Under the pieces are notes generated by a model that was not told the DNA's origin, did not search any database, and was given only the letters and a program-made list of their open reading frames with translations. Below, one piece after another: positions 2 through 26,062 of a stretch of DNA of 27,033 bases. Each line of letters opens with the position of its first letter. The first letter of the stretch is position 1. A program made the translations under genes and the position numbers. The stretch is from a virus, in IMG/VR virus record IMGVR_UViG_3300024346_009716, positions 1 through 27,033 of that record. The stretch is one strand, 5' to 3'.

Positions 2-769
2 TGTTTCGTTTTTGAAAGTAATGTTTTTGATGCTGTTTTTGATTTTCTTAGAGGCTTGCTAAAAAACAACCCAGACAAAGAAAAACTTTGTGTTGTAATA
101 GATAGTATGGATGGGCTTCTACCCCAATCAGAACTTGAAAAGAGGACTAGTGACGCAGCAAAAGTAGCTGCTGGAGCTTTAATGACTTCAGATTTCCTTA
201 AGAGAGTTAGTCTTGGCATGTGTAAATTTGGACATATGCTAATTATGATTTCTCAGATCAGGGCAAAGGTAGATATTAACCCTTATGCAAAAGGAGACCC
301 AAATAATCAGACAAATGCAAGTGGTGGAAACGCTGCTTTACATTATCCAGATTGGATCTTAGAATTCCAAAAACAATTCAAGTCAGATAAAATCTTAGAA
401 AAGCCAACCGAACAAATCGGGCCTAATAATAAAATATATGGACATATGGCTAAAGTTCTTATTTGCAAGTCTACTAATGAATCTACAGGTCAACTTGTAA
501 AATACCCAATTAAACACGGCAGGATTAATGGAAAATCTATTTGGGTCGAACGTGAAATTGTAGAGATGCTCCTCATGTGGGACTTTATGGGTAAAAAGGG
601 TTCTTGGTTTGACTTTGATGAAGAGATAATATCTTATTTGGCAGACAAAGAGGTTGAATCAAAAACTAAATTTCAGGGCATGGCATCTATATATGAATAT
701 CTCGAAAAAAACCCTAAAGTGTCAGAGGTCCTAGAACAGTTTGTAAAAGAAAAAATTCTATCTGAATGA
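2..769 (+). CDS. RecA/UvsX-like recombinase, 3' part (5' end outside window)
   Basis: The reading frame is open from base 2, so the gene begins upstream; the TTG at 56 is only an internal codon. The product is a RecA-fold ATPase expected to coat single-stranded DNA and drive strand exchange in phage recombination and repair. Visible RecA features are a Walker B strand (LCVVIDSMDGL), the following acidic segment (PQSELEKRTSD), the strand MLIMISQIRAKV matching RecA's LLIFINQIRMK, and a loop-2 region ending in SGGNAALHYPDWILEF, matching RecA's TTGGNALKFYAS. Walker A must lie upstream. The C-terminus is Glu/Lys-rich. The stop overlaps the next start (ATGA at 766), suggesting translational coupling. 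The family is clear; whether it is closer to UvsX or bacterial RecA cannot be decided from this part. Confidence 0.88.
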   Translation, partial: CFVFESNVFDAVFDFLRGLLKNNPDKEKLCVVIDSMDGLLPQSELEKRTSDAAKVAAGALMTSDFLKRVSLGMCKFGHMLIMISQIRAKVDINPYAKGDPNNQTNASGGNAALHYPDWILEFQKQFKSDKILEKPTEQIGPNNKIYGHMAKVLICKSTNESTGQLVKYPIKHGRINGKSIWVEREIVEMLLMWDFMGKKGSWFDFDEEIISYLADKEVESKTKFQGMASIYEYLEKNPKVSEVLEQFVKEKILSE

Positions 770-1173
770 TATTTACATCAATACACGGTAGAGACTTAAA
801 AATGAAAAACCCCACGAAATACTTAATTAAGTGGGATAAAAAATGCAGGAGCAAGATACAAAAAAGAGTGAAAGATTTGCTCTATAAACATTGGCTTGCA
901 GATGTTGTCTTTGAAGAGTTCCCTGTAATGGGTTCTAGGATGACCATTGACTTTTACAACGCGAATAAGAAAATAGCAATAGAGGTTGATGGAGGTCAAC
1001 ACTACAAGTATAATAAATTTTTTCACGCGAATGATAGGCAGAAGTTTCTAGAACAATTAAAAAGAGACGAAACAAAAGATAACTTCTGTGAAATGAATAA
1101 AATAGAACTTATAAGAATCATAGAATCAGATAAATTAGATGACAATTTATTGAAAACACTAAAAATTATATGA
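766..1173 (+). CDS. VSR/DUF559-like PD-(D/E)XK endonuclease
   Basis: This 135-residue basic protein resembles the Vsr/DUF559 branch of the PD-(D/E)XK nuclease fold. The core reads MTIDFYN...IAIEVDGGQHY, giving candidate catalytic residues Asp62, Glu73, Asp75 and His79. It is followed by a helix with QLKRDETKDNFC and the strand IELIRI, the usual end of this fold. The family includes very-short-patch repair nicking enzymes, some phage homing endonucleases and uncharacterised phage nucleases. The start overlaps the recombinase stop (ATGA); an alternative ATG lies at residue 13. Being coupled to a RecA-like gene fits a role in recombination or repair, but a free-standing homing-type endonuclease is equally possible. 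No partner recognition domain is visible. Confidence 0.72.
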   Translation: MIFTSIHGRDLKMKNPTKYLIKWDKKCRSKIQKRVKDLLYKHWLADVVFEEFPVMGSRMTIDFYNANKKIAIEVDGGQHYKYNKFFHANDRQKFLEQLKRDETKDNFCEMNKIELIRIIESDKLDDNLLKTLKII

Positions 1174-14772: not shown

Positions 14773-15762
14773 ATGCCCTCTGCAACAAGAGTACACTCTA
14801 GCGACACTCAGATCTTCATTGATAGTGTTGCTATTGCTGGTATTCAGTCAAAAAGTGTAGAAATAAACAGGGAGTATCAAGATTTAAGGCCTTTAGGATC
14901 TACGTCTAATAAAGACAAAATACTTACCTCAAATCAAACAGTAGGTATAAACTTGGATTATTTGGTTGTCCACAATGGATTTGATCCTTTCAATACTACT
15001 AATGGTCTACTCAATATATACAAACAAGAAATCAAAATAGTAGATACGACCCATCAATTTATAGCTTCTGGGGCTTATTTGCAGTCTTGTTCTTTAGATA
15101 TATCTGTTGGAGATAACCCAAGAGGCTCCGCTTTTTACGAAGCAGAAGAAATTTCTTATAATGATGGAATATTTCTAACCCCATTAGACCAAACCGAAGA
15201 TCAATACGCGAGTATTTTCAGACCGCAGGAAATAATTGTTTCTAAATCATATTTTGAAGATGGTATTGAGGGTTGTGATGGTGGCGTATGTGGTTTTTGT
15301 ATACAATCAGCTTCAATAAATGTATCCTTAAATAGGGAAGCTGTAAACAAGGTCGGAGAAATGATTCCAAGAATGAGATACCCTTCTTTGCCTATAAATG
15401 GAGAAGTATCTTTTGAAGCTGTAAAAACAAACATGAAAGAGGTGGATATTTCTTCATTAATCTTAGGGAAGGGCGATTTAACCTTTGATTTAAAAAGAAA
15501 AGCCAGAAATTTTTCTTTGCAATATAAGATAAGCGATTGCTCTTTAATTTCTGTTACTGAAAGCCTTGACTTGGATGGTAACGCGATAATAAACTTTTCT
15601 TACCAATTTCCATTAAATAATTCTGGATTAAGGGTATTGGTAATTGGAGAAGACACGGGCGGCGGCGGCGGCGGCGGTGGCGATGGCCCAGTATGTGACT
15701 TAGATAATGAATGGGATAATGTTGATACATGGTTAGATGAATGCGATTGGCCACAACCTTAG
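14773..15762 (+). CDS. Probable phage tail-tube-like structural protein with poly-Gly hinge
   Basis: This 329-residue protein is beta-rich. It opens MPSATRVHSSDTQIFIDSVA, a pattern seen in tail-tube-like phage proteins. A related block seems to recur in the second half: one near residue 30 with VEINREYQDLRPLGS, the other near 180 with INVSLNREAV, ending MRYPSLPINGEVSF. At the C-terminus eight consecutive glycines, encoded mainly by GGC, lead to a 24-residue acidic tail with two cysteines (CDLDNEWDN...DEC). The tail could be a small displayed domain on a flexible linker. The first gene after the probable promoter at 14725, it heads the structural block. Tail tube is the best guess; another virion protein is possible. 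Confidence 0.55.
   Translation: MPSATRVHSSDTQIFIDSVAIAGIQSKSVEINREYQDLRPLGSTSNKDKILTSNQTVGINLDYLVVHNGFDPFNTTNGLLNIYKQEIKIVDTTHQFIASGAYLQSCSLDISVGDNPRGSAFYEAEEISYNDGIFLTPLDQTEDQYASIFRPQEIIVSKSYFEDGIEGCDGGVCGFCIQSASINVSLNREAVNKVGEMIPRMRYPSLPINGEVSFEAVKTNMKEVDISSLILGKGDLTFDLKRKARNFSLQYKISDCSLISVTESLDLDGNAIINFSYQFPLNNSGLRVLVIGEDTGGGGGGGGDGPVCDLDNEWDNVDTWLDECDWPQP
15658..15681 (+). repeat. GGC trinucleotide run encoding eight glycines
   Basis: Six consecutive GGC codons (15658-15675) followed by GGT and GGC encode a poly-Gly hinge. This is unusually GC-rich within an AT-rich genome. Slippage by whole codons would change the hinge length without breaking the frame. Confidence 0.9.
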
Positions 15763-15866: not shown

Positions 15867-17273
15867 ATGGCACAACAAAAATTTACCGTAACCCCAGGAA
15901 CTCACCAAGACGTACGTGATATTATCAACAGCAATTCTGACGATGCGCAAGCTAGATTATTGTCTCTTGAGACAAGCGGAGTCTCTGGAGAATCTGCATA
16001 TGAGATAGCTGTTAATAATGGATTTGCTGGTAGCGAAGCTGCTTGGTTGGAATCGCTCATTGGCGCAGATGGACAAGATGGAGTTGCAGGCTCAACTGGC
16101 TCTACAGGCCTTACTGGCCCTGCAGGACAAGACGGGACATCTGTAGTGTTAAAGGGTACTGTCGCTGATTTCGCCAGCTTGCCAGCTGGCGCTGCAGAAG
16201 GGGATCTTTATATTACTTTAGATACGGGGGACGGTTGGGTTAGTAATGGAACAGAGAGTTGGGGAAATGTCGGTGCAATTCAAGGACCCCAAGGCCCGCA
16301 AGGTGAAAAAGGAGATATTGGACTCACTGGGGATGATGGATTAACTGGTCCTGTCGGGGAACAAGGTATACAAGGGGAAAAGGGAGATATAGGAGAAACT
16401 GGAGAGAATGGTAATACTGTTCTTAGTGGAGACTTTATTCCGACAAACGAGGGCGTCGATGGAGATTTTTTTATTAGAACAGACACTTTGGAACTGTATG
16501 GTCCAAAAACTGCTGTTGGATGGGGAGAAGAGCCGACGTCTTTGGTGGGTTCAACAGGACTAGATGGCTCTGATGGCAATACAATTTTAAGCGGTTTTAG
16601 CACACCATTAAATTCAGAGGGAGCAGATGGAGACTTTTTCATTAATACAGAAACCTCTGATTTTTACGGACCGAAATCTAATGGTACTTGGAGCGCTGCT
16701 ATCTCTTTGCTCGGCGAAGATGGCGCGGGAGTCCCTACTGGTGGAACAACCACTCAAATTATAAGTAAAATAGACGGCGTTGATTTCAATACTGAATGGA
16801 TTGATAACACTGCCAATAACACTACTTACGATAATGTGGATTCTGGGCTAACGGCGATAAACGTTAAAGACGCAATTGATGAGATTGCTACAGAGATTGC
16901 TACAGCTAAAGTTAAATTCTGGTACTTAAACAAAATGGGGGATGAAGTTTCCGCTTTTTCTGGAGACGGTGAAAAGACCGCTTGGGTAGCTCCAGCTGCA
17001 GGAGAAATTCATTCTGTTCACAGTGGTTCTTCTACAGCAACCCAAGGAGGAGATATTGTCGTCGATGTTAAAAAACAAGGGTTAAGTATACTTGGTACGC
17101 TTGGCGTAATAGCTTCTGGTTTAAATAGCACAACCTCGGGGACACCACATGTACTTACAACTAACCCAACTAGTTTTGCTGCTGGAGATAGAATTTCATT
17201 TGAAATTAGCAGCTTTACCGCGACTGGAGGAGCAAAAGGACTTCATACAGACATTCTAATATCTTGGGATTAA
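15867..17273 (+). CDS. Collagen-like tail fiber protein
   Basis: This 468-residue fiber has a likely virion-attachment N-terminus (VRDIINSNSDDAQARLLSLE). Gly-x-y collagen-like segments lie at roughly 67-93 and 133-180. Two copies of a short beta module follow, each with DGDFFI, a nearby YGPK and W, separated by Gly-rich linkers. An Asn/Thr-rich region and a short helix (VKDAIDEIATEIATAKVK) that may trimerise come next. The C-terminal 110 residues are a beta-rich tip ending HTDILISWD. It probably forms a trimeric fiber for binding the host surface. The N-terminus and beta module recur in the protein at 20538. A TATAAA hexamer lies seven bases before the ATG. Confidence 0.78.
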   Translation: MAQQKFTVTPGTHQDVRDIINSNSDDAQARLLSLETSGVSGESAYEIAVNNGFAGSEAAWLESLIGADGQDGVAGSTGSTGLTGPAGQDGTSVVLKGTVADFASLPAGAAEGDLYITLDTGDGWVSNGTESWGNVGAIQGPQGPQGEKGDIGLTGDDGLTGPVGEQGIQGEKGDIGETGENGNTVLSGDFIPTNEGVDGDFFIRTDTLELYGPKTAVGWGEEPTSLVGSTGLDGSDGNTILSGFSTPLNSEGADGDFFINTETSDFYGPKSNGTWSAAISLLGEDGAGVPTGGTTTQIISKIDGVDFNTEWIDNTANNTTYDNVDSGLTAINVKDAIDEIATEIATAKVKFWYLNKMGDEVSAFSGDGEKTAWVAPAAGEIHSVHSGSSTATQGGDIVVDVKKQGLSILGTLGVIASGLNSTTSGTPHVLTTNPTSFAAGDRISFEISSFTATGGAKGLHTDILISWD

Positions 17274-17288
17274 AAACTTACTTTTTAA

Positions 17289-20200
17289 ATGATTGTTAAT
17301 CCATACATTTTCAGTTCCAATTTAGTACCCCTGACTAATACATTAATGTATGATGAGTCTGGCGTAAAGCTTTTTGATATCTTTGGAGAAATCGACACGT
17401 ATGAATATAATTCCAATATATATCAGGTTGAGATTGGCACATCTTGCACAATTATTGGGAGTTATGCTTTTTATAGTTGCAGTGGGTTAAGTGGCTCGTT
17501 TGTTATACCAAGTAGCGTTACGAGTATTGGGAGTAGTGCTTTTGGTTACGATGTACCCATCAGCAATATGTTTGTGGATACCCCTTCTAGCTTTTGGCCT
17601 CCTTATCTAGGATCAGGTGGTTTTAATTATGATGCAGCGTTTCTTTTTAATTACAATGCAATTAAAATTCATGTTTCGCCAGATTATTTTGGTGTAGGTT
17701 CTAACTATGATGAAAGTTGGAAGGACCTTCAAGAATTATCGAATGCATCTACAATTGTTAACTGGGATTGGTATCCATACCCCGTTCCTAATGAGGACGG
17801 ACCAGTTGAAAGCACTCTTTATGATATTAGTGACGCTGCTTTAGTTGGTCTTTTCGGACCAATCCCAGACAACTGGAACGATAATAATTCGCCGTATGAC
17901 GCCACTCGTTTAGAGATCGGTAAATCATGTACGAGTATTGGGAGTTTTGCGCTTAGTAATTGCACCAGCTTAATTGGTTCATTAACTATCCCAGATAGCG
18001 TTATAACTATTGGGAGTAATGCTTTTAGTTATTGCACTGGCTTAACTGGTTCATTAACTATCCCAGATAGCGTTACAACTATTAAAAGTAATGCTTTTCA
18101 GGCTTGCACTGGTTTAGGCGGTTTATTAACCATTCCGAATAGCGTTGGTAGTATTGAGAGTGCTGCTTTTAGCCTTATCTCAATAAACACATTATCTGTA
18201 TTAAATGAATTAACAACCATTTCATCTTTAGCATTTTCATCTAATACATTTTTAACAGATGCTTTTTTAGCTCCTTCTTTTTCTTCGGTAGATGGCAGTA
18301 CATTCACATCATGCAACAACCTAACTAAGGTTTACGCTAAAGACGCCGCTTCTAATGGATACACAATTGGAGTGGGCCAGAGCGTTGGAGGAGAAACAGT
18401 TGAAGTACTTAACTGGGATTGGTATCCATACCCCGTTCCTAATGAGGACGGACCAGTTGAAAGCACTCTTTATGATATTAGTGACGCTGCTTTAGTTGGT
18501 CTTTTCGGACCAATCCCAGACAACTGGAACGATAATAATTCGCCGTATAACACTGCCACTCGTTTAGAGATCGGTAAATCATGTACGAGTATTGGAAAAA
18601 AAGCTTTTTGGGTATGTGACAACCTTACTGGCAGCTTAACCATTCCAGATAGCGTTTTAATTATTGACGACAACGCCTTCACAAGTTGCTTTGGCCTTGA
18701 CGGCACATTGACCATTGAAAATGGAGTTCAAAGCATAGGAATAGGTGCATTTAGCAATAATGGTTTTACTGGTTCACTGGTTCTGCCAGACAGTTTGGAA
18801 ACTCTTGGTAGTACTGCTTTTTACAAAGCCAAATTTACAGGTGGATCATTAACTATTCCTGACAGCGTTACTAGCATCGGGCAAAGATGTTTTAAACTTA
18901 CGGAGTTTACTAGCTTATTGAGTTTCCCAAACAACATTTCTTTTGAAATCATTCCAAACGAATGCTTTAGTACTTGCTCTGCATTAACTGGTCCATTGAC
19001 TATTCCAGATAGCGTTACGACTATTGGGAGTGGTGCTTTTTACCAATGCACTGGCTTAAGTTCATTAACTATTGGGAATAGTGTTGCAACTATTGGGAGT
19101 AATGCTTTTAAGTATTGCACTGGCTTTACTTCATTAACTATTCCAAATAGTGTTAGGACTATTGAAACAGAGGCCTTCCGTGGTTGTGATTTTACTGGTT
19201 CATTGACCATTGAAAATGGAGTCACAACTATTGGAGATTATGCTTTTAGTTATTGCGATGGTTTTACTGGTTCATTAACTATTCCAAATAGTGCCGAAAC
19301 TATTGGGGATTATGCTTTTTATAATTGCGATGGTTTAGATGGTTATTTAGTAATTCCAAATAGTTTTACGAGTATTGGGAGTAATGCTTTTTATAACAAT
19401 TCTTTTGAGAATATATATATAGATTGTGCGGCTTCATCTTGGACAGGGACAAATGCTTTATCCCTCTCTCAAGCTTTAGCGCCAGTGATTTACGTTAATG
19501 ATCCTGACCCAGATGCTGCTGGATACAATGCAGCATGGAAAACAGCGCAAGGATTACAAGTGGAAACTATAATTTTAACTTGGCAAAACTACCCAGCTCC
19601 AACGCCTAATCCAATTGATCCTGCTCTAACTTACCTTTATGACTCTGGTGGTTCTTTTTTGACTCTTCTTCAAGATGATATACCCAATAACTGGAACGAT
19701 GGCAATACACCATACAATGCTGATAGAGTTGAGATCGGCACATCATGCACAAGTATTGGTAATTATGCTTTTTCAAATTCTAATAATATGACTGCAGGCT
19801 TAGTTATACCGTCTAGTGTTTTGACTATTGGTGATCGTGCTTTCAATCAATGCGATAACTTAACTGGTTCATTAACAATTCCAGATAGTGTTGATACTAT
19901 TGGGAGTTATGCTTTTAATTATTGCACTGGCTTTACTGGTTCATTAACCATTGAAAATGGAGTCCAAAACATTAGCAGTTATGCTTTTAATTATTGCAAT
20001 GGCTTCACTGGTTCATTAACCATTCCAGATAGTGTTACGACTATTGGGAGTAATGCTTTTTATATGGGGGTCTTTTTCGGCCCACCTTCTTGGTCTGGAG
20101 CATTAACTATTGGTGATGGGATAGAAACTCTTGGTAGTAGGGCTTTTCAGTATTGCTCTGGCTTTACTTCATTAACTATTGGGAATGTTCTTACAAGCAT

Positions 20201-20441
20201 TGGGGATTTCGCTTTTAAAAATTGTAGTGACATTATTCATATATATATCAATTGCGGTTCTGATAAATGGACAGGATCAAACGCTTTACAATTAACGACC
20301 GCACTTACAAAGATATATATTAACAATCCTGACCCAGATGCAGCTGGATACAATGCAGCATGGAAAACAGCGCAAGGAGTTGATGTCGGAGTAGTAATTG
20401 AGACATGGAACAATTTCCCAGCTTCAACACCAAATCCATAA
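17289..20441 (+). CDS. Giant BspA-like leucine-rich repeat adhesin (four modules)
   Basis: This 1050-residue protein is built of LRR_5/BspA-type repeats of about 23-24 residues, pattern GSLTIPdSVTtIGsnAF-x-x-C-x-gL, with about 27 copies. I see four modules, each with a header containing NWND and EIG-SCTSIG, a run of repeats, a cap (for example W-T-G-T-N-A-L with a following DPDAAGYNAAWK) and a closing W-x-x-Y/F-P motif; the first module's header is shorter. Approximate module borders are at 17758, 18409 and 19581. BspA-like repeats are known from bacterial and protist surface adhesins. Here, between two collagen-like fibers, a tail-tip receptor-binding role is likely. The N-terminus (MIVNPYIFSS) differs from that of the smaller paralogues. 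Confidence 0.8.
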   Translation: MIVNPYIFSSNLVPLTNTLMYDESGVKLFDIFGEIDTYEYNSNIYQVEIGTSCTIIGSYAFYSCSGLSGSFVIPSSVTSIGSSAFGYDVPISNMFVDTPSSFWPPYLGSGGFNYDAAFLFNYNAIKIHVSPDYFGVGSNYDESWKDLQELSNASTIVNWDWYPYPVPNEDGPVESTLYDISDAALVGLFGPIPDNWNDNNSPYDATRLEIGKSCTSIGSFALSNCTSLIGSLTIPDSVITIGSNAFSYCTGLTGSLTIPDSVTTIKSNAFQACTGLGGLLTIPNSVGSIESAAFSLISINTLSVLNELTTISSLAFSSNTFLTDAFLAPSFSSVDGSTFTSCNNLTKVYAKDAASNGYTIGVGQSVGGETVEVLNWDWYPYPVPNEDGPVESTLYDISDAALVGLFGPIPDNWNDNNSPYNTATRLEIGKSCTSIGKKAFWVCDNLTGSLTIPDSVLIIDDNAFTSCFGLDGTLTIENGVQSIGIGAFSNNGFTGSLVLPDSLETLGSTAFYKAKFTGGSLTIPDSVTSIGQRCFKLTEFTSLLSFPNNISFEIIPNECFSTCSALTGPLTIPDSVTTIGSGAFYQCTGLSSLTIGNSVATIGSNAFKYCTGFTSLTIPNSVRTIETEAFRGCDFTGSLTIENGVTTIGDYAFSYCDGFTGSLTIPNSAETIGDYAFYNCDGLDGYLVIPNSFTSIGSNAFYNNSFENIYIDCAASSWTGTNALSLSQALAPVIYVNDPDPDAAGYNAAWKTAQGLQVETIILTWQNYPAPTPNPIDPALTYLYDSGGSFLTLLQDDIPNNWNDGNTPYNADRVEIGTSCTSIGNYAFSNSNNMTAGLVIPSSVLTIGDRAFNQCDNLTGSLTIPDSVDTIGSYAFNYCTGFTGSLTIENGVQNISSYAFNYCNGFTGSLTIPDSVTTIGSNAFYMGVFFGPPSWSGALTIGDGIETLGSRAFQYCSGFTSLTIGNVLTSIGDFAFKNCSDIIHIYINCGSDKWTGSNALQLTTALTKIYINNPDPDAAGYNAAWKTAQGVDVGVVIETWNNFPASTPNP
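17758..17941 (+). repeat. Long direct repeat in the giant adhesin gene, copy 1
   Basis: About 184 bases, encoding the module border NWDWYPYPVPNEDG and the following header, recur at 18409-18595. By eye the copies are identical except near the end of the header: copy 1 codes YDATR and copy 2 YNTATR, one codon longer. Such identity contrasts with the diverged repeats around it and points to recent duplication or gene conversion. Confidence 0.92.
18409..18595 (+). repeat. Long direct repeat in the giant adhesin gene, copy 2
   Basis: Second copy of the 17758 repeat, three bases longer. Recombination between the two copies would delete or duplicate one whole adhesin module of about 217 codons while keeping the reading frame. 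Confidence 0.92.
19501..19553 (+). repeat. 53-base cap repeat in the giant adhesin gene, copy 1
   Basis: This encodes DPDAAGYNAAWKTAQG at the end of module 3. It recurs at 20326-20378 with one mismatch. It marks the cap of a leucine-rich module. Confidence 0.88.
20326..20378 (+). repeat. 53-base cap repeat in the giant adhesin gene, copy 2
   Basis: Second copy of the 19501 repeat, at the end of module 4, differing at one base. Confidence 0.88.
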
Positions 20442-20480
20442 AACACAAACAATTATTAAATACCAATACCAAAATTCACA

Positions 20481-20502
20481 ACACAATTAAAAATTCTTGT
20501 GT
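20481..20502 (+). repeat. Short inverted repeat before the second collagen-like fiber
   Basis: ACACAA (20481-20486) and TTGTGT (20497-20502) can pair around a ten-base loop. No T run follows, so it is not a typical terminator. A TATACT hexamer at 20504-20509 lies directly downstream, so an operator is conceivable. The 96-base gap holds no gene I can support. Confidence 0.4.
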
Positions 20503-20537
20503 ATATACTGAATAGGAAGAACTTTTAAAAAACCAAA

Positions 20538-22049
20538 ATGCCTCAAGAAATTTTCATACCAACAGAAGGAGTATCCACCCACCTAGAAGCAAGAAACGTT
20601 ATTAACAGTAACGCGAATGATGCAGAGGTGCGGATAGCTAATTTAGAGTCTAGATTAGATTTAGAACCTCACAATATTAATTCTTCATATGGAGAAGGAG
20701 AAACGTTTTATTTTGGTGGTTCTTCTTATAGGGTTGATGATGGAGCAACATTGAATGTAGGTGAAAGCCCAACAACCAATCCAGAAAAAGTAACCATACT
20801 TGATAATGTTGGACTTGACGGAAAAACCGTTCTTAACGGCATCGTCGTTCCGACAACTGAAGGTGTCGACGGAGACTTTTATATTAAGACAGACAGCTCT
20901 GACATTTATGGACCAAAGACTGGAGGCTCTTGGGGTTCTGCTACGTCTTTGATTGGTGCCGATGGTGCAGCAGGCGCAGATGGTGCAGCAGGCGCAGATG
21001 GTGCAGTAGGCGCAGATGGCGCAGATGGTGCAGATAACGCAACCCTTGAGTCAGTCACAACTAATGGAGCAATAACTCTGAACGATATTCAAGTTGGTAG
21101 AATTGCAACATTGCATCCGACCAATGCAGCCAACAACAACGCCGCTACTGGAACTCAATCCGCGTCAATCGGTGGTAGGAGGAACACTGCGAGTGGGACA
21201 AGAGCGACCACTTTTGGAGGCACAGATAACACAGTAAGCGGACAAGACAGCACCGCAGTCGGAGGCAACAATCAAGACGTAATTGGCGTTGAGTCGGAGG
21301 CTTTAGGTTCAACAAACCTAGTTTTAAACACAAAATACACCTCCGCACTTGGCACAGCTAATAGTGTAGTAGGACTGGCAACTTCGCCAGATACTTCTGT
21401 GGAGGCTAAACATTCTGTTATTGTAGGTGGTGAAGCTCAAATAATCGAGGACGCTGCCTACGCTGTGATACTTGGTGGTGAGGCAAATAAAGTTGTAACA
21501 ACTCATGACAGATCTGTAATCCTTGGGGGCACGAATATTACTACTGACGCATCAGACACGGCATACGTTCAGAATCTCAATATCAAAAGCGGATTCAAAA
21601 TGCCAACTGGCGCGTCTAATACTTACGTCCTAACTTCAGACGCTAATGGCGTAGGCACATGGCAAGCTGCTGCAGGTGGACCAGCGGGTCCTTCTGGGAC
21701 TACACTCTCAGGCACTACAGCAAATGCCACTCCAACAGAAATCTTTGTAGATGGAACATCTCCGAATAGGGTAGATGTAGCTACTGGTTCAACAATTACA
21801 TTTTCTGCTTTAGTCGCTGCAAGATCTGCCACTGAAAGTGCTGGCTATAAGATCGAGGGTGTTATTAAGAACGATGCTGGAACAGCCACATTAGTTGGCG
21901 TTGTAGCTAAAACAGTTTTCGCCGAAGAGGATATAGCTTGGGATATTACAGTAACTGCGGCTAATAACGCAATTACCTTTATTGTAACTGGTGATAGTGC
22001 TGATTCGGTATCTTGGGAAGTAACCCTCAATAAGATCGAAGCAACCTAA
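20538..22049 (+). CDS. Collagen-like tail fiber with trimeric-adhesin-like head repeats
   Basis: This 503-residue fiber shares its N-terminus with the protein at 15867 (ARNVINSNANDAEVRIANLE). It also has one copy of the same beta module (DGDFYI, YGPK, WG). Next is a short alternating GADGAAG stretch. Then comes a run of repeats resembling YadA-type trimeric autotransporter heads, pattern S-x-x-x-GG-x-x-N-t-a-S-G (SASIGGRRNTASGT, TTFGGTDNTVSGQ, TAVGGN, SVIVGGEA, AVILGGEAN, SVILGG). A peptide with TYVLTSDANGVGTW and a beta-rich C-terminal domain follow. It is probably a trimeric receptor-binding fiber. An AGGAAG lies 18 bases before the ATG, too far for a normal ribosome site. Confidence 0.76.
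   Translation: MPQEIFIPTEGVSTHLEARNVINSNANDAEVRIANLESRLDLEPHNINSSYGEGETFYFGGSSYRVDDGATLNVGESPTTNPEKVTILDNVGLDGKTVLNGIVVPTTEGVDGDFYIKTDSSDIYGPKTGGSWGSATSLIGADGAAGADGAAGADGAVGADGADGADNATLESVTTNGAITLNDIQVGRIATLHPTNAANNNAATGTQSASIGGRRNTASGTRATTFGGTDNTVSGQDSTAVGGNNQDVIGVESEALGSTNLVLNTKYTSALGTANSVVGLATSPDTSVEAKHSVIVGGEAQIIEDAAYAVILGGEANKVVTTHDRSVILGGTNITTDASDTAYVQNLNIKSGFKMPTGASNTYVLTSDANGVGTWQAAAGGPAGPSGTTLSGTTANATPTEIFVDGTSPNRVDVATGSTITFSALVAARSATESAGYKIEGVIKNDAGTATLVGVVAKTVFAEEDIAWDITVTAANNAITFIVTGDSADSVSWEVTLNKIEAT
20955..21035 (+). repeat. 18-base tandem repeats encoding a collagen-like stretch
   Basis: Copies of an 18-base unit containing GATGGTGCAGCAGGCGCA run in tandem with small changes and encode repeated GADGAA. 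Copy number could vary by recombination or slippage without breaking the frame. Confidence 0.8.
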
Positions 22050-22052
22050 ACC

Positions 22053-22892
22053 ATGAGTCAAACATTCAAAGGAGATATAACTAACAATGTAGTCGAGCTT
22101 AACTTACAAGCTGGGGCTGATAACATTGGAACTCCTACTGTTGCATATGATGGCACTAATAATGGTGAGATTTCTGTGCAGGTAATGGGGGACGTGGATG
22201 AATTCAGTGGTTTTCAAACCGCTGGTTCTGCTATTAAAGGATTAGTAATTGGTACATCATGCACAACTATTGGGAATAGTGCTTTTTATTTTTGCTCTGG
22301 CTTAACTGGTTCATTAACTATTGGAAATAGTGTTACGAGTATTGGGAGTTATGCTTTTGGTTTTTGCGTTGGCTTTAACGGTTCATTGACTATTGGAAAT
22401 AGTGTTACAAGTATTGAGAGTTATGCTTTTAGTGGTTGCTCTGGCTTTAACGGTTCATTAACCATTCCGAATAGTGTTACAAGTATTGGGAGTTATGCTT
22501 TTAGTAGTTGCTCTGGCTTAACTGGTTCATTAACTATTCCAGATAGTGTTACAAGTATTGGGGATTATGCTTTTGGAAGTTGCAATAGCTTAACTGGTGA
22601 TTTAGTCATTCCTAATAGTGTTACAAGTATTGGGATGTATGCTTTTAGTAATTGCGTTGGCTTTGACGGTTCATTAACTATTGGAAATAGTGTTACTAGT
22701 ATTGGGAGTTATGCTTTTTATGCTTGCGTAAACTTTACATCTGTCAACATTCTAGCGACAACTGCGCCGACAATTAGCTCTAGTGCTTTTTACAACATGA
22801 TTTTAGTATCCCCAGCAGAAATACATGTTCCAGTTGGAGCAACAGGATACGCCGCATCTTATGACGGATTAACCGTCGTTTACGATCTATAA
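22053..22892 (+). CDS. BspA-like leucine-rich adhesin, small paralogue 1
   Basis: This 279-residue protein has an N-terminal domain of about 70 residues (MSQTFKGDITNNVVELNLQ) shared with the proteins at 23485 and 24428. About eight LRR_5 repeats follow, of the type SLTIGNSVTSIGSYAF with a Cys three positions on. A C-terminal cap contains APTISSSAFYNM and EIHVPVGATGYAASYDG. The start is four bases after the fiber gene's stop, without a ribosome binding site. The N-terminal domain probably docks the protein onto the virion and the repeats probably form the ligand-binding surface; both are inferences from the family and position. Confidence 0.78.
   Translation: MSQTFKGDITNNVVELNLQAGADNIGTPTVAYDGTNNGEISVQVMGDVDEFSGFQTAGSAIKGLVIGTSCTTIGNSAFYFCSGLTGSLTIGNSVTSIGSYAFGFCVGFNGSLTIGNSVTSIESYAFSGCSGFNGSLTIPNSVTSIGSYAFSSCSGLTGSLTIPDSVTSIGDYAFGSCNSLTGDLVIPNSVTSIGMYAFSNCVGFDGSLTIGNSVTSIGSYAFYACVNFTSVNILATTAPTISSSAFYNMILVSPAEIHVPVGATGYAASYDGLTVVYDL
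22260..22730 (+). repeat. 72-base leucine-rich DNA repeats
   Basis: Near-identical 72-base units, each with a core close to GTTACAAGTATTGGGAGT, run through this gene. Close copies recur in the genes at 17289, 23485 and 24428. For example, about 60 bases near 19900 and near 24063 differ at very few positions. The similarity is at DNA level, not only protein level. Confidence 0.85.
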
Positions 22893-22916
22893 ATAAATTT
22901 AAAACAAAAAAACAAT

Positions 22917-23483
22917 ATGAAATACGCAATCACAGGTCCAAGAGGGGCAATCTTTAACATAGTAGATGTAGAGCCAACAGACGCTCCACACTATAGCGAA
23001 ATTTCTGATGCTGATGCAGCTACAGTAGAAGCTAGTGAGGGTGGATTCTTTATCGTTGATGGTGTTCTGCTAACAAGGGATGAATTCAGAGCCGCTAAAC
23101 AACAAGAAAGATATGAAGCACAAATTACTGAGTTCGGTGCTGATATTGATGGCGCAAAAGCATTCGTAAGAGATCACTTCGCCAGTAAGAGATATGATTT
23201 TGAAGTAGGTGGCATTGATTTTAATGGACTAGCAGTAAGAACTGATAGATTTACAGTAGAGAGAATTTACCAAGCAAGATTTTTGGCTAAAGAAGATGCC
23301 GCATTTACTACTGATTGGAAACTTGGTGATGGTACATTCCTTACAATCGATGCCCCAACCATTATTGGTTTATCTGATGCTGTAACAGCACACCTTAAAG
23401 AAGCATTTACAAAAGAAAAGACCGCAAACACCTCAATCGACGCCGCAACTACACTAGCAGAACTACAAGCGATCACTTGGTAA
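22917..23483 (+). CDS. DUF4376-like tail fiber-associated protein
   Basis: This 188-residue protein starts MKYAITGPRGAIFNIVD. Its C-terminal 110 residues resemble DUF4376, a domain found in phage tail-fiber and fiber-assembly proteins: KRYDFEVGGIDFNGLAVRTD, then a helix region, then DWKLGDGTFLTIDAPTIIGL and LKEAF. A short helix (RDEFRAAKQQERYEAQI) precedes it. It lies between two leucine-rich adhesin genes, which fits a fiber-assembly or adhesin-anchoring role. The precise function of DUF4376 is not established. The gene starts 24 bases after the upstream stop and ends one base before the next ATG. Confidence 0.7.
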   Translation: MKYAITGPRGAIFNIVDVEPTDAPHYSEISDADAATVEASEGGFFIVDGVLLTRDEFRAAKQQERYEAQITEFGADIDGAKAFVRDHFASKRYDFEVGGIDFNGLAVRTDRFTVERIYQARFLAKEDAAFTTDWKLGDGTFLTIDAPTIIGLSDAVTAHLKEAFTKEKTANTSIDAATTLAELQAITW

Positions 23484-23484
23484 T

Positions 23485-24426
23485 ATGAGTAAAACATACA
23501 AAGGAGATGTGACAGGTAATGTCGTTGAGCTTAATTTGCTTGATGCCAACGAAGGCACGTTGCCAAATCTTGGCACTCCTACTGTTGTTACACTTAATAC
23601 TGGACCGAATGATGTAACGCAAGTTGTTGGGGATATTCCCGCTAACTGGAAACAGGGTGACTCCTCTCTAAAGGGATTAGTGATTGGAAGTTCTTGCACA
23701 AGTATTGGGAGTACAGCTTTTGAGGGTTGCACTGGCTTATATGGTTCTTTAGTGATTCCCGATAGTGTTACAACTATTGGGAGTTATGCTTTTCGTTATT
23801 CCTCTAACTTAACTGGTTCATTAACTATTCCAAATAGTGTTGAAAGTATTGGGGATGGTGCTTTTAATTCTTGCATTGGCTTTAACGGTTCATTAACTAT
23901 TGGAAATAGTGTTACAACTATTGGGAGTACAGCTTTTAATTATTGCTCATACTTAACTGGTTCATTAACTATCCCAGATAGTGTTACGAGTATTGGAAAT
24001 TATGCTTTTGCTTTTTGCTATGGCTTAACTGGTCCATTAACAATTCCAGATAGCGTTACAAATATTGGGAGTTATGCTTTTAGTTATTGCACTGGCTTTA
24101 CTGGTTCATTAACCATTGGAAATAGTGTTACGAGTATTGGGAGTAATGCTTTTTATGCTGGTAACTTTGATAAATTAGTTGTTGGTAGTGGTGTTACGAG
24201 TATTGGAAATTATGCTTTTGGTTCCAATCTTATTCCTGTTGCTTATGCATCTTGCCCTGCATCAGCTTTTGTTGGTAGCGTTGCTTTTTATCAATGCAGT
24301 AGCTTAACCACCTTATATGCAAGAGACGCTGTAGCAAATGGCTATACTCTCGGCTCACAATCATTTGAAGGTGCAACATTAACCGTAGCCAACTGGGACA
24401 ACTACCCTAACCCAATCCCTAACTAA
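23485..24426 (+). CDS. BspA-like leucine-rich adhesin, small paralogue 2
   Basis: This 313-residue protein has the shared N-terminal domain (MSKTYKGDVTGNVVELNL). A header with GDIPANWKQGDSSLKGLVIG-SCTSIG recalls the headers inside the giant adhesin. About nine LRR_5 repeats follow, then a cap with YASCPASAFVGSVAF and a final NWDNYPNPIPN, the same W-x-x-Y-P ending as the giant protein's modules. The gene thus equals one free-standing module. It is packed one base after the DUF4376 gene's stop and ends one base before the next start. Confidence 0.79.
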   Translation: MSKTYKGDVTGNVVELNLLDANEGTLPNLGTPTVVTLNTGPNDVTQVVGDIPANWKQGDSSLKGLVIGSSCTSIGSTAFEGCTGLYGSLVIPDSVTTIGSYAFRYSSNLTGSLTIPNSVESIGDGAFNSCIGFNGSLTIGNSVTTIGSTAFNYCSYLTGSLTIPDSVTSIGNYAFAFCYGLTGPLTIPDSVTNIGSYAFSYCTGFTGSLTIGNSVTSIGSNAFYAGNFDKLVVGSGVTSIGNYAFGSNLIPVAYASCPASAFVGSVAFYQCSSLTTLYARDAVANGYTLGSQSFEGATLTVANWDNYPNPIPN

Positions 24427-24427
24427 C

Positions 24428-25222
24428 ATGAGTAAATCATACACAGGACTAACTACCAACGGAGTAACAGAACTCACCCTACAAGAAGAAGGTGGCAATA
24501 TAGGAACTCAGACTATTGTTTGGGATGATACATTTAATGGTGAGATCGATCAAGTGCAGGGTGATATACCAGACAACTGGAAGAATGGTGGCGCACTAAA
24601 GCAATTACAGATTGGTAGTTCGTGTACGGGTATTGGGAGTAGGGCCTTTTATGGTTGCGATGGCTTAACTGGTAATTTAGTTATTCCAAATAGTGTTACG
24701 ACTATTGGGAGTTATGCTTTTTATTATTGTCAAGGCTTAACTGGCGATTTAGTCATTCCAGATAGTGTTACGAGTATTGGGAGTAGTGCTTTTGGTTATC
24801 TTGGGACAACACCCCTCGGTACATTAACTATCGGAAACAGCGTTGCAAGTATTGGGAGTTATGCTTTTGCTTATAGTTACTTTACTGGCGATTTAATAAT
24901 ACCAGATAGTGTTACTACTATTGGAGATTCTGGTTTTGCTGATTGGGCATTCTCTCATGTTATGTTTAACGGCAATATAGTCATAGGCAGTGGAGTCACA
25001 TCTATTGGAAGTAGTGCTTTTTATGGAGTGGGAACTACTGCTTTATATATCAATTGCCCAGCGTCATCTTGGATAGGGACGAATGCTTTACTTCAAACCA
25101 GTCCTCTTACCAATATATATGTTCACGCTGATTATGTTACTGGCTATGATGCTACTTGGAAAGGTAATCAACAAACATCAGCTACAGTATCAACGTGGAC
25201 AAACTACCCTAACGTACCATAA
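24428..25222 (+). CDS. BspA-like leucine-rich adhesin, small paralogue 3
   Basis: This 264-residue protein has the shared N-terminal domain (MSKSYTGLTTNGVTELTLQ) and header (VQGDIPDNWKNGGALKQLQIG). About six LRR_5 repeats follow, more diverged than in its neighbours (for example SSAFGYLGTTPL and SGFADWAFSH). A cap with INCPASSWIGTNAL closely matches the cap of module 3 in the giant adhesin, and the C-terminus is WTNYPNVP. It ends the adhesin cluster; the next gene has its own promoter. Confidence 0.79.
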   Translation: MSKSYTGLTTNGVTELTLQEEGGNIGTQTIVWDDTFNGEIDQVQGDIPDNWKNGGALKQLQIGSSCTGIGSRAFYGCDGLTGNLVIPNSVTTIGSYAFYYCQGLTGDLVIPDSVTSIGSSAFGYLGTTPLGTLTIGNSVASIGSYAFAYSYFTGDLIIPDSVTTIGDSGFADWAFSHVMFNGNIVIGSGVTSIGSSAFYGVGTTALYINCPASSWIGTNALLQTSPLTNIYVHADYVTGYDATWKGNQQTSATVSTWTNYPNVP

Positions 25223-25264: not shown

Positions 25265-26062
25265 ATGAAAACAGTTCACTTTACATCTGGTCTTCCTAGA
25301 GCTTGCTCTACTCTTCTACAAAACTTACTAGCCCAAAACCCTGAGGTTCACGCCACTGCCACATCTGGCATTCATGAGATTGGTTACATTGCTAGAGACT
25401 TCTTTGAAACAGAGGAATTTAAAACATTTAAAAACCCACTAGACGGCGAAAGACAATACCACAATTTCCTTAGAGGAGGTATTAAAAGCGCATTTGATGG
25501 CGACACTGATAGACCAGTTGTTGTAGATAAGTGTAGATCATGGATTGGGCATCTTGATCAATTGTTTCAAGTGTTTCCAGATGCTAAAGTATTAGTGCCA
25601 GTAAGAGATATTCGTGGTATTCTATCTAGCTTTGAGAAGATGAGGATTAAACATCCATCAAGGTTTGTCGGGGTAGAGAAGCAAAACCCCCAAAGCTGGA
25701 CAACTGTTGAGAAGAGATCACAGGGATGGCTACAAATGCCGCCACTTGGCATTGCAGTAGAGAGACTACATGATGCAGTAAAGAGACATAAGGATAAACT
25801 TCACTTTGTTCATGCAGAAGATCTAACAGCAAACCCAGTAGAAGCAATGAATGCAATCTGGGACTATCTAGAGATGGATAGATTTGAGGTTAATCCACTA
25901 AATGTAGAGCAATATACGGATGAGCATGAGCTTGGTTGGCCGTATGGTGAGCATAAGATCCGCAACGTTGTGAAGCCATTGAAGCCAGATTGGCATGATG
26001 TTTTGGGTAGAGAGTTCTCAGATCAGATTAAACAGTCGTTTGATTGGATAAATGAGCTTTAG
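25265..26062 (+). CDS. PAPS-dependent sulfotransferase
   Basis: This 265-residue protein has the sulfotransferase P-loop at residues 8-20 (SGLPRACSTLLQNLL), which binds the 5'-phosphosulfate of PAPS, and a 3'-phosphate motif at 111-123 (VPVRDIRGILSSF, Arg114 and Ser121/122). KCRSWIGHLDQLFQVFPDAKVL between them is typical of the family. Such enzymes transfer sulfate to sugars, peptides or small molecules; the substrate here is not visible. No signal peptide or membrane segment is present, so it acts in the cytoplasm. It has its own strong promoter inside the adhesin and fiber region. It may modify a phage protein or host surface sugar, or alter PAPS metabolism; this is inference. Confidence 0.85.
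   Translation: MKTVHFTSGLPRACSTLLQNLLAQNPEVHATATSGIHEIGYIARDFFETEEFKTFKNPLDGERQYHNFLRGGIKSAFDGDTDRPVVVDKCRSWIGHLDQLFQVFPDAKVLVPVRDIRGILSSFEKMRIKHPSRFVGVEKQNPQSWTTVEKRSQGWLQMPPLGIAVERLHDAVKRHKDKLHFVHAEDLTANPVEAMNAIWDYLEMDRFEVNPLNVEQYTDEHELGWPYGEHKIRNVVKPLKPDWHDVLGREFSDQIKQSFDWINEL

What the first reader, a model, noticed from the sequence alone, without database searches (positions are those of the whole stretch)
17289..25222. Expanded family of BspA-type leucine-rich tail adhesins, one giant and three small
The giant protein is four modules in tandem (header, repeats, cap, W-x-x-Y/F-P), and each small paralogue is one such module with a different N-terminal docking domain. The family therefore grew both by gene duplication and by fusion of modules. 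Many repeat units are near-identical at DNA level across genes, which would favour recombination that shuffles repeat number and surface residues. This could be a way to change host range by recombination, without a reverse transcriptase.
Basis: partly seen in the sequence, partly recalled or inferred. Interest (0 to 1): 0.75.

Follow-up and report, generated by a model that had tools for sequence, protein, structure and literature searches.

The report
Shuffled repeat adhesins in phage tails
A group of uncultured, probably aquatic phages carries a block of tail-fibre-like genes whose leucine-rich repeats are swapped, gained and lost between genes and between unrelated phages, with five exposed residues per repeat evolving under diversifying selection, so these phages appear to remodel what they stick to by recombination rather than by a mutating enzyme.

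Summary
All four ORFs are BspA-type LRR proteins (PF13306). The giant is four tandem modules (2/4/11/7 repeats, four W-x-x-Y/F-P caps). The three small proteins share one related N-terminal domain, S1 lacks the W-x-x-Y/F-P cap, and units are similar rather than near-identical (2 of 990 pairs reach 90%).

Two phages 98-99% identical across replication genes carry arrays of 10/6/10/4 versus 13/4/9/12 repeats, only 64-84% identical. Nearest-neighbour N-terminal segments keep their slot class in 32 of 32 genes; caps do so in 14 of 32. One 105-nt cap tract is 100% identical between slot 3 of one phage and slot 1 of another, yet keeps slot-1 ends. Repeat positions 13, 14, 17, 18 and 20 show held-out pN/pS of about 2; the framework shows 0.17. 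No reverse transcriptase was found. The cassette, with a DUF4376 tail-fibre-chaperone homologue and a sulfotransferase, occurs at 93-95% DNA identity in phages with T4-type and lambda-type structural genes.

Best reading: exchangeable receptor-binding LRR adhesins diversified by recombination plus selection. Virion location, receptor, host and docking role are inferred. The giant has no close relative, so its own dynamics are untested.

The parts
17289..20441 (+). Giant BspA-type LRR protein, 1050 aa, four tandem modules (approx. 17289-17777, 17778-18428, 18429-19595, 19596-20438) with 2/4/11/7 LRR units
   Evidence: PF13306 E=2.8e-127; unit scan; W-x-x-Y/F-P at aa 159, 376, 765, 1040; only a distant relative (31% identity) found in IMG/VR
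17758..17941 (+). Module junction/header, copy 1 of a recent intragenic duplication
   Evidence: 99% identical over 143 nt to 18409-18551; 97.9% over 187 nt
18409..18595 (+). Module junction/header, copy 2
20538..22049 (+). Fibre-like protein with weak beta-roll match; its conserved C-terminal third marks the left border of the shared cassette
   Evidence: PF21300 E=9e-4, below cut-off; C-terminal part about 79-95% aa identical in relatives with different N-termini
22053..22892 (+). S1: small LRR protein, slot 1 N-terminal domain, about 7 units, no W-x-x-Y/F-P cap
   Evidence: PF13306 E=5.7e-62
22917..23483 (+). DUF4376 protein, probable tail-fibre chaperone
   Evidence: PF14301 E=3.8e-13; PHROG 10508 tail fiber E=3.6e-20; DUF4376 chaperones V22 gp27 and A5 gp9 (PMC7289586, PMC10579305)
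23485..24426 (+). S2: small LRR protein, slot 2 N-terminal domain, about 8 units, W-D-N-Y-P cap
   Evidence: PF13306 E=4.4e-46; AF2 model pLDDT 89.2, matches BspA-type LRR structures
24428..25222 (+). S3: small LRR protein, slot 3 N-terminal domain, about 6 units, W-T-N-Y-P cap
   Evidence: PF13306 E=2.7e-28
25265..26062 (+). Sulfotransferase, conserved right border of the cassette
   Evidence: PF13469 E=5.2e-16; 89-99% aa identical in 15 of 16 fetched loci
15867..17273 (+). Collagen-like tail fibre upstream (context)
   Evidence: PF01391 E=1e-11; PHROG 3904 tail fiber E=1.4e-25

Best explanation
The small LRR genes are probably exchangeable receptor-binding adhesins of a phage tail. Each has a short, nearly invariant N-terminal domain that marks its place in the operon (inferred to dock it on the virion), a BspA-type LRR solenoid of 3-13 repeats, and a swappable C-terminal cap. 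A DUF4376 chaperone homologue sits in the operon. Diversity comes from homologous recombination at two levels: exchange of whole cassettes between phages, anchored in conserved flanks, and recombination or gene conversion among repeats and caps within and between slots. Selection then favours new residues at five exposed positions of each repeat. Shown: the LRR family, variation in array length, conserved N-termini, cap exchange, the pN/pS pattern, and presence in unrelated phages. Inferred: virion location, docking, receptor binding and host-range change. The window's giant looks like a fusion product of the same modules, but it could not be compared with relatives.
For: LRR_5 in all four; S2 model resembles BspA-type surface LRRs 4gt6, 4fd0, 4fs7, 6mlx. 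Setting: collagen-like tail fibres, lambda-type minor tail L in six relatives and tail assembly PHROG 32 in one, DUF4376 chaperone. Turnover: G001 vs G003 98.4% over 6275 nt and 98.8% over 6236 nt, while slots differ 10/6/10/4 vs 13/4/9/12 units and 64-84% identity; L028 vs L030 95.4% over 7041 nt with slot 1 of 5 vs 10 units. N-terminal 96 nt nearest neighbour same class 32/32, cap 14/32. 105-nt identical cap L15 slot 3/L19 slot 1 with slot-1-specific ends. pN/pS at positions 13, 14, 17, 18, 20: 1.6-2.4 held out, gene bootstrap 1.6-2.8; framework 0.17. Same cassette in gp23-bearing contigs at 93-94% DNA identity in DUF4376 and sulfotransferase, while the window's DNA polymerase is 51-53% aa identical to the lambda-type relatives.
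Against: No virion proteomics, host or receptor. The window's N-terminal domains match no tail family in PHROGs or Pfam. S1 and several relatives end in a different cap. Caps show some slot memory (14/32 against 6.6 by permutation, p=0.005), so exchange is not free. Near-identical phages keep identical arrays. Import of alleles cannot be separated from intragenomic shuffling with these contigs. V22-type fibres served by DUF4376 are not LRR proteins, so the chaperone may serve a different fibre of the operon.
Confidence: 0.72

Rival explanations
1. Ordinary mosaicism: whole tail-fibre alleles are exchanged by homologous recombination at conserved flanks, and the repeats merely diverge slowly within long-lived allele lineages, with no shuffling of repeats or caps.
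For: Fibre-region flanks are themselves more divergent (85-90%) than the replication genes of the same two phages (98-99%); host-recognition modules shared by distant marine phages are known (PMC10579305).
Against: Cap nearest neighbours lie in a different docking class in 18 of 32 genes; a 105-nt identical tract is embedded between slot-specific ends; a 95% identical 191-nt tract between two slots of one phage.
Confidence: 0.17
2. Hypermutation by a diversity-generating retroelement: variable codons (mostly NNT) are rewritten from a template repeat.
For: Variable codons end in T in 78% and vary mainly at the first two bases; the residue set Y/N/S/G/F/D is typical of rewritten AAY codons (own knowledge).
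Against: No RVT_1 in 12 contigs including one of 91.8 kb; 22% of the variable-codon differences touch the third base; neighbouring framework codons are equally T-ended; repeat number also changes.
Confidence: 0.03
3. Not virion parts: the LRR proteins are expressed during infection and placed on or outside the host cell, for instance for attachment or superinfection control.
For: BspA-type LRRs are typical bacterial surface proteins; the docking role is untested.
Against: No anchor domain in the family scans; genes lie among tail fibres and beside a fibre-chaperone homologue in several unrelated phages.
Confidence: 0.06
4. Assembly artefact: repeats were collapsed or joined wrongly in metagenome assembly.
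For: Short-read assembly of repeats is error-prone, and all sequences are metagenomic.
Against: Arrays recur exactly in separately assembled metagenomes (L009/L010 0 mismatches over 11.2 kb, L036/L037 0 over 11.4 kb; L015/L016 identical in all LRR genes); all frames stay open and repeats diverge enough (median 58% in the window) to assemble.
Confidence: 0.02

Closest known systems
Host-recognition module of Alteromonas phages V22, A5 and P24 (tail fibre plus DUF4376 chaperone; PMC7289586, PMC10579305)
   Same: Fibre gene(s) with a DUF4376 chaperone in one operon; the module is shared by morphologically distinct marine phages
   Different: V22/A5 fibres have lectin-like knob domains and are not LRR solenoids; one fibre-chaperone pair, no multi-slot repeat arrays reported
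Metaviromic islands in marine phages (PMC3909814)
   Same: Host-recognition genes vary among otherwise near-identical phages, with conserved N-termini and variable C-termini
   Different: LRR proteins are not named there ('leucine' does not occur in the text); here repeat-level shuffling between paralogues is resolved
BspA-type LRR surface proteins (PF13306; PDB 4gt6, 4fd0, 4fs7, 6mlx)
   Same: Same repeat family and solenoid
   Different: Encoded in phage fibre cassettes with short slot-specific N-termini
Lamprey variable lymphocyte receptors (from own knowledge)
   Same: LRR scaffold, variable repeat number, hypervariable exposed residues, recombination-based diversity
   Different: VLR assembly is programmed and somatic; here the evidence is for population-level recombination; no homology is claimed
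Diversity-generating retroelements on phage fibres (e.g. PMC6199706, PMC10743442)
   Same: Function: hypervariable receptor-binding residues
   Different: No reverse transcriptase found; repeat number varies

Membership tests
BspA-type LRR family (PF13306) | Score above the curated cut-off with repeated units | tested here: met
   98.9 to 418.8 bits against a cut-off of 27.7
BspA-type LRR family (PF13306) | BspA-type LRR solenoid fold | tested here: met
   AF2 pLDDT 89.2; Foldseek top hits are BspA-type LRR structures, E down to 1e-7. TM-scores are modest (0.3-0.6), possibly because solenoid curvature and repeat number differ
Phage tail fibre / receptor-binding protein | Encoded in the tail-fibre region with fibre chaperone | tested here: met
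   Collagen-like fibres, DUF4376; lambda-type tail L genes in six relatives
Phage tail fibre / receptor-binding protein | N-terminal domain that attaches to the virion | tested here: inconclusive
   Conserved per slot, but no match to a known attachment domain
Phage tail fibre / receptor-binding protein | Present in the virion and binds host cells | not testable with these tools
   Needs phage and host
DUF4376 tail-fibre chaperone | DUF4376 domain near fibre gene | tested here: met
   PF14301 E=3.8e-13; tail-fiber-annotated relatives in ZF40 and phiPMW
Diversity-generating retroelement target | Reverse transcriptase in the same genome | tested here: not met
   PF00078 absent in 12 related contigs and no RT domain in the ten fibre-region proteins scanned; contigs are fragments
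Diversity-generating retroelement target | Template repeat with variation only at adenines | not tested
   No template search was made; third-base changes in 22% of variable-codon differences speak against it
Metaviromic island | Hypervariable locus in an otherwise near-identical phage population | tested here: met
   Contig comparison in place of read recruitment

The most novel reading that the evidence does not exclude
A phage counterpart of variable lymphocyte receptors: a multi-slot repertoire of LRR adhesins, kept variable by recombination among a shared pool of repeats and caps that circulates between unrelated phage lineages, with diversifying selection on five residues per repeat, acting as a retroelement-free host-range engine.
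Probability: 0.35. Interest if true: 0.85.

Novelty: new variant of a known kind. Interest (0 to 1): 0.66.

Why it matters
Phages need variable receptor-binding parts, and the best-known dedicated solution is the diversity-generating retroelement. Here a different scaffold and route are visible at sequence level: LRR arrays whose repeat number, caps and exposed residues turn over while docking ends, chaperone and neighbours stay fixed. It gives testable predictions (which residues contact the receptor, which slots are interchangeable) and suggests a natural library of LRR binders against environmental bacteria.

Tried and rejected
Search for close relatives of the giant: only a 31% identical LRR protein, so its dynamics are untested. 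Search for a host or prophage with DUF4376 and sulfotransferase in 84,980 genomes: none. Relatives of the 14773-15762 tail gene: none. DNA match of the cassette to deposited phages: none; LRR relatives there are under 60% identical. PDB match for DUF4376 by sequence or fold: none significant. N-terminal domain families: no tail match. DGR: no RT. Concerted evolution within a phage: the nearest unit lies in the same gene in 10% of cases (3.5% by permutation) and in another genome in 81%, so homogenisation is weak; most repeats come from a common pool. Within-sample read-level tests were not possible.
Full report
WHAT IS THERE. The window is an IMG/VR viral contig of 27,033 bases, a linear fragment. 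Its left part encodes a replication module (UvsX-like, DnaB, primase, exonuclease, DNA polymerase III alpha, Clp-like ATPase). Its right part is a fibre region: a collagen-like tail fibre (15867-17273), the giant LRR protein (17289-20441), a beta-roll-like fibre (20538-22049), S1 (22053-22892), a DUF4376 protein (22917-23483), S2 (23485-24426), S3 (24428-25222), a sulfotransferase (25265-26062), a small protein, and a second collagen-like fibre. The four LRR proteins belong to PF13306.

CHECK OF THE DESCRIPTION. A profile of the 16-residue core finds 24 units in the giant in groups of 2, 4, 11 and 7, and 7, 8 and 6 units in S1-S3. The giant has four W-x-x-Y/F-P motifs; S2 and S3 have one each and S1 none. 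The N-terminal domains of S1-S3 are related to each other (46-52% identical) and not clearly to the giant's. Within the window 2 of 990 unit pairs reach 90% DNA identity and the median is 58%; the exception is the 143-nt, 99% identical duplicated header inside the giant.

RELATIVES. Scans of viral contigs with the neighbours (sulfotransferase, DUF4376) and the N-terminal domains gave 11 further distinct loci, sharing all or part of one order: fibre - slot 1 LRR - DUF4376 - slot 2 LRR - slot 3 (and 4) LRR - sulfotransferase. In a subgroup (L010, L021) the N-terminal domain is replaced by an unrelated-looking one (MSHT-x-K-x-PP...), with LRR, DUF4376 and sulfotransferase retained.

THE PROPOSED REFUTATION TEST. 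Two contigs (G001 and G003) are 98.4% identical over 6,275 nt and 98.8% over 6,236 nt in the replication region; other shared stretches are lower (92.6% over 10,451 nt, 79.2% over 5,083 nt). Their four LRR slots have 10/6/10/4 and 13/4/9/12 units and align at 64-84% with 42 to 660 gapped positions, while the first 32 codons of each slot stay 92-99% and DUF4376 97% identical. L028 and L030 are 95.4% identical over 7,041 nt and have 5 and 10 units in slot 1. Across genomes slot 1 has 3 to 13 units and slot 2 has 3 to 11. Mean pairwise identity falls from 92-97% at the start codon to 33-45% past nucleotide 165 in ungapped comparison. The arrays are therefore not conserved with point-mutation-level divergence. 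Near-identical phages from separate samples carry identical arrays, which argues against assembly artefact and against a fast switch.

RECOMBINATION BETWEEN SLOTS. The nearest relative of the first 96 nt is in the same docking class in 32 of 32 genes (partly by construction, because classes were named from this domain). The nearest relative of the last 120 nt is in the same class in only 14 of 32 (6.6 expected by permutation, so some slot memory remains). Examples: the cap of L13 slot 2 is closest (94%) to L21 slot 3, and that of L10 slot 1 to L17 slot 3 (92.5%), each pair across unrelated N-terminal families. The clearest tract: L19 slot 1 and L15 slot 3 share 105 identical nt, while the last codons of L19 slot 1 are those of L15 slot 1 (NIP stop, not NPIPN stop) and L15 slot 1 itself differs at many synonymous sites. 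This is what gene conversion between paralogous slots would leave.

SELECTION. In 139 canonical 24-residue units, positions 13, 14, 17, 18 and 20 carry about 3 bits of amino-acid entropy; framework positions are conserved in protein but drift synonymously. When positions are chosen in half the genomes and tested in the other half, the same five come up in all eight splits printed and pN/pS is 1.6-2.4 (mean 2.0), against 0.17 for framework positions; gene bootstrap 1.6-2.8. Recombination and repeat non-independence make these ratios approximate. In the S2 model the LTI strand spans positions 1-5, so the variable positions lie outside it, around the conserved A-F-x-x-C core residues (face inferred from DSSP, not measured).

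SPREAD BETWEEN PHAGES. L011/L012 and L028 carry the T4-type major capsid protein gp23; six other relatives carry lambda-type minor tail protein L; L018 and L020 have GroEL (L020 by family match). The window's polymerase is 51-53% identical to that of the lambda-type relatives, while DUF4376 and sulfotransferase are 93-95% identical at DNA level to a gp23-bearing and a lambda-type relative. The fibre cassette therefore moves between phage lineages.

FUNCTION. DUF4376 proteins V22 gp27 and A5 gp9 are tail-fibre chaperones in Alteromonas phages, and that host-recognition module is shared by distant phages (PMC7289586, PMC10579305). With the fibre neighbourhood this supports a receptor-binding role for the LRR proteins. 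Not shown: presence in virions, docking by the N-terminal domain (no family match), receptor, and host.

NOVELTY. LRR proteins in phages are known by annotation, as are variable fibres and shared host-recognition modules. I found no paper in the held library on recombining LRR arrays in phage fibres, though that library is incomplete. New variant of a known kind.

Noticed in passing
window 25265-26062; L015 5298-6104; L010 11565-15553; L021 10829-16655: A Sulfotransfer_3 gene sits at the right border of every fetched LRR cassette that reaches that side (one distant locus, L024, 67% identical). In L010 and L021 a row of further genes is inserted between it and the next fibre gene, and L015 has a second sulfotransferase (36% identical).
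   Followed up: partly
window 20538-22049, C-terminal third: The fibre before S1 has a conserved C-terminal domain joined to different N-termini in relatives, so the left recombination border of the cassette falls inside this gene.
   Followed up: partly
L018 2311-3939, L020 9426-11054: Phages with the same sulfotransferase-bordered cassette carry a GroEL chaperonin gene (L020 matched by family; L018 by near-identical N-terminus).
   Followed up: no
L024 8328-10001: An open frame with LRR similarity next to a 67% identical sulfotransferase in a contig of quite different gene content: a distant version of the pairing.
   Followed up: no
window 766-1173: DUF559 (endonuclease-like) protein directly after the UvsX-like recombinase.
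   Followed up: no
L015/L016 1757-1784 and 7823-8630: The 22 differences between two near-identical phages lie in small clusters outside the LRR genes, as short recombination tracts would leave.
   Followed up: no
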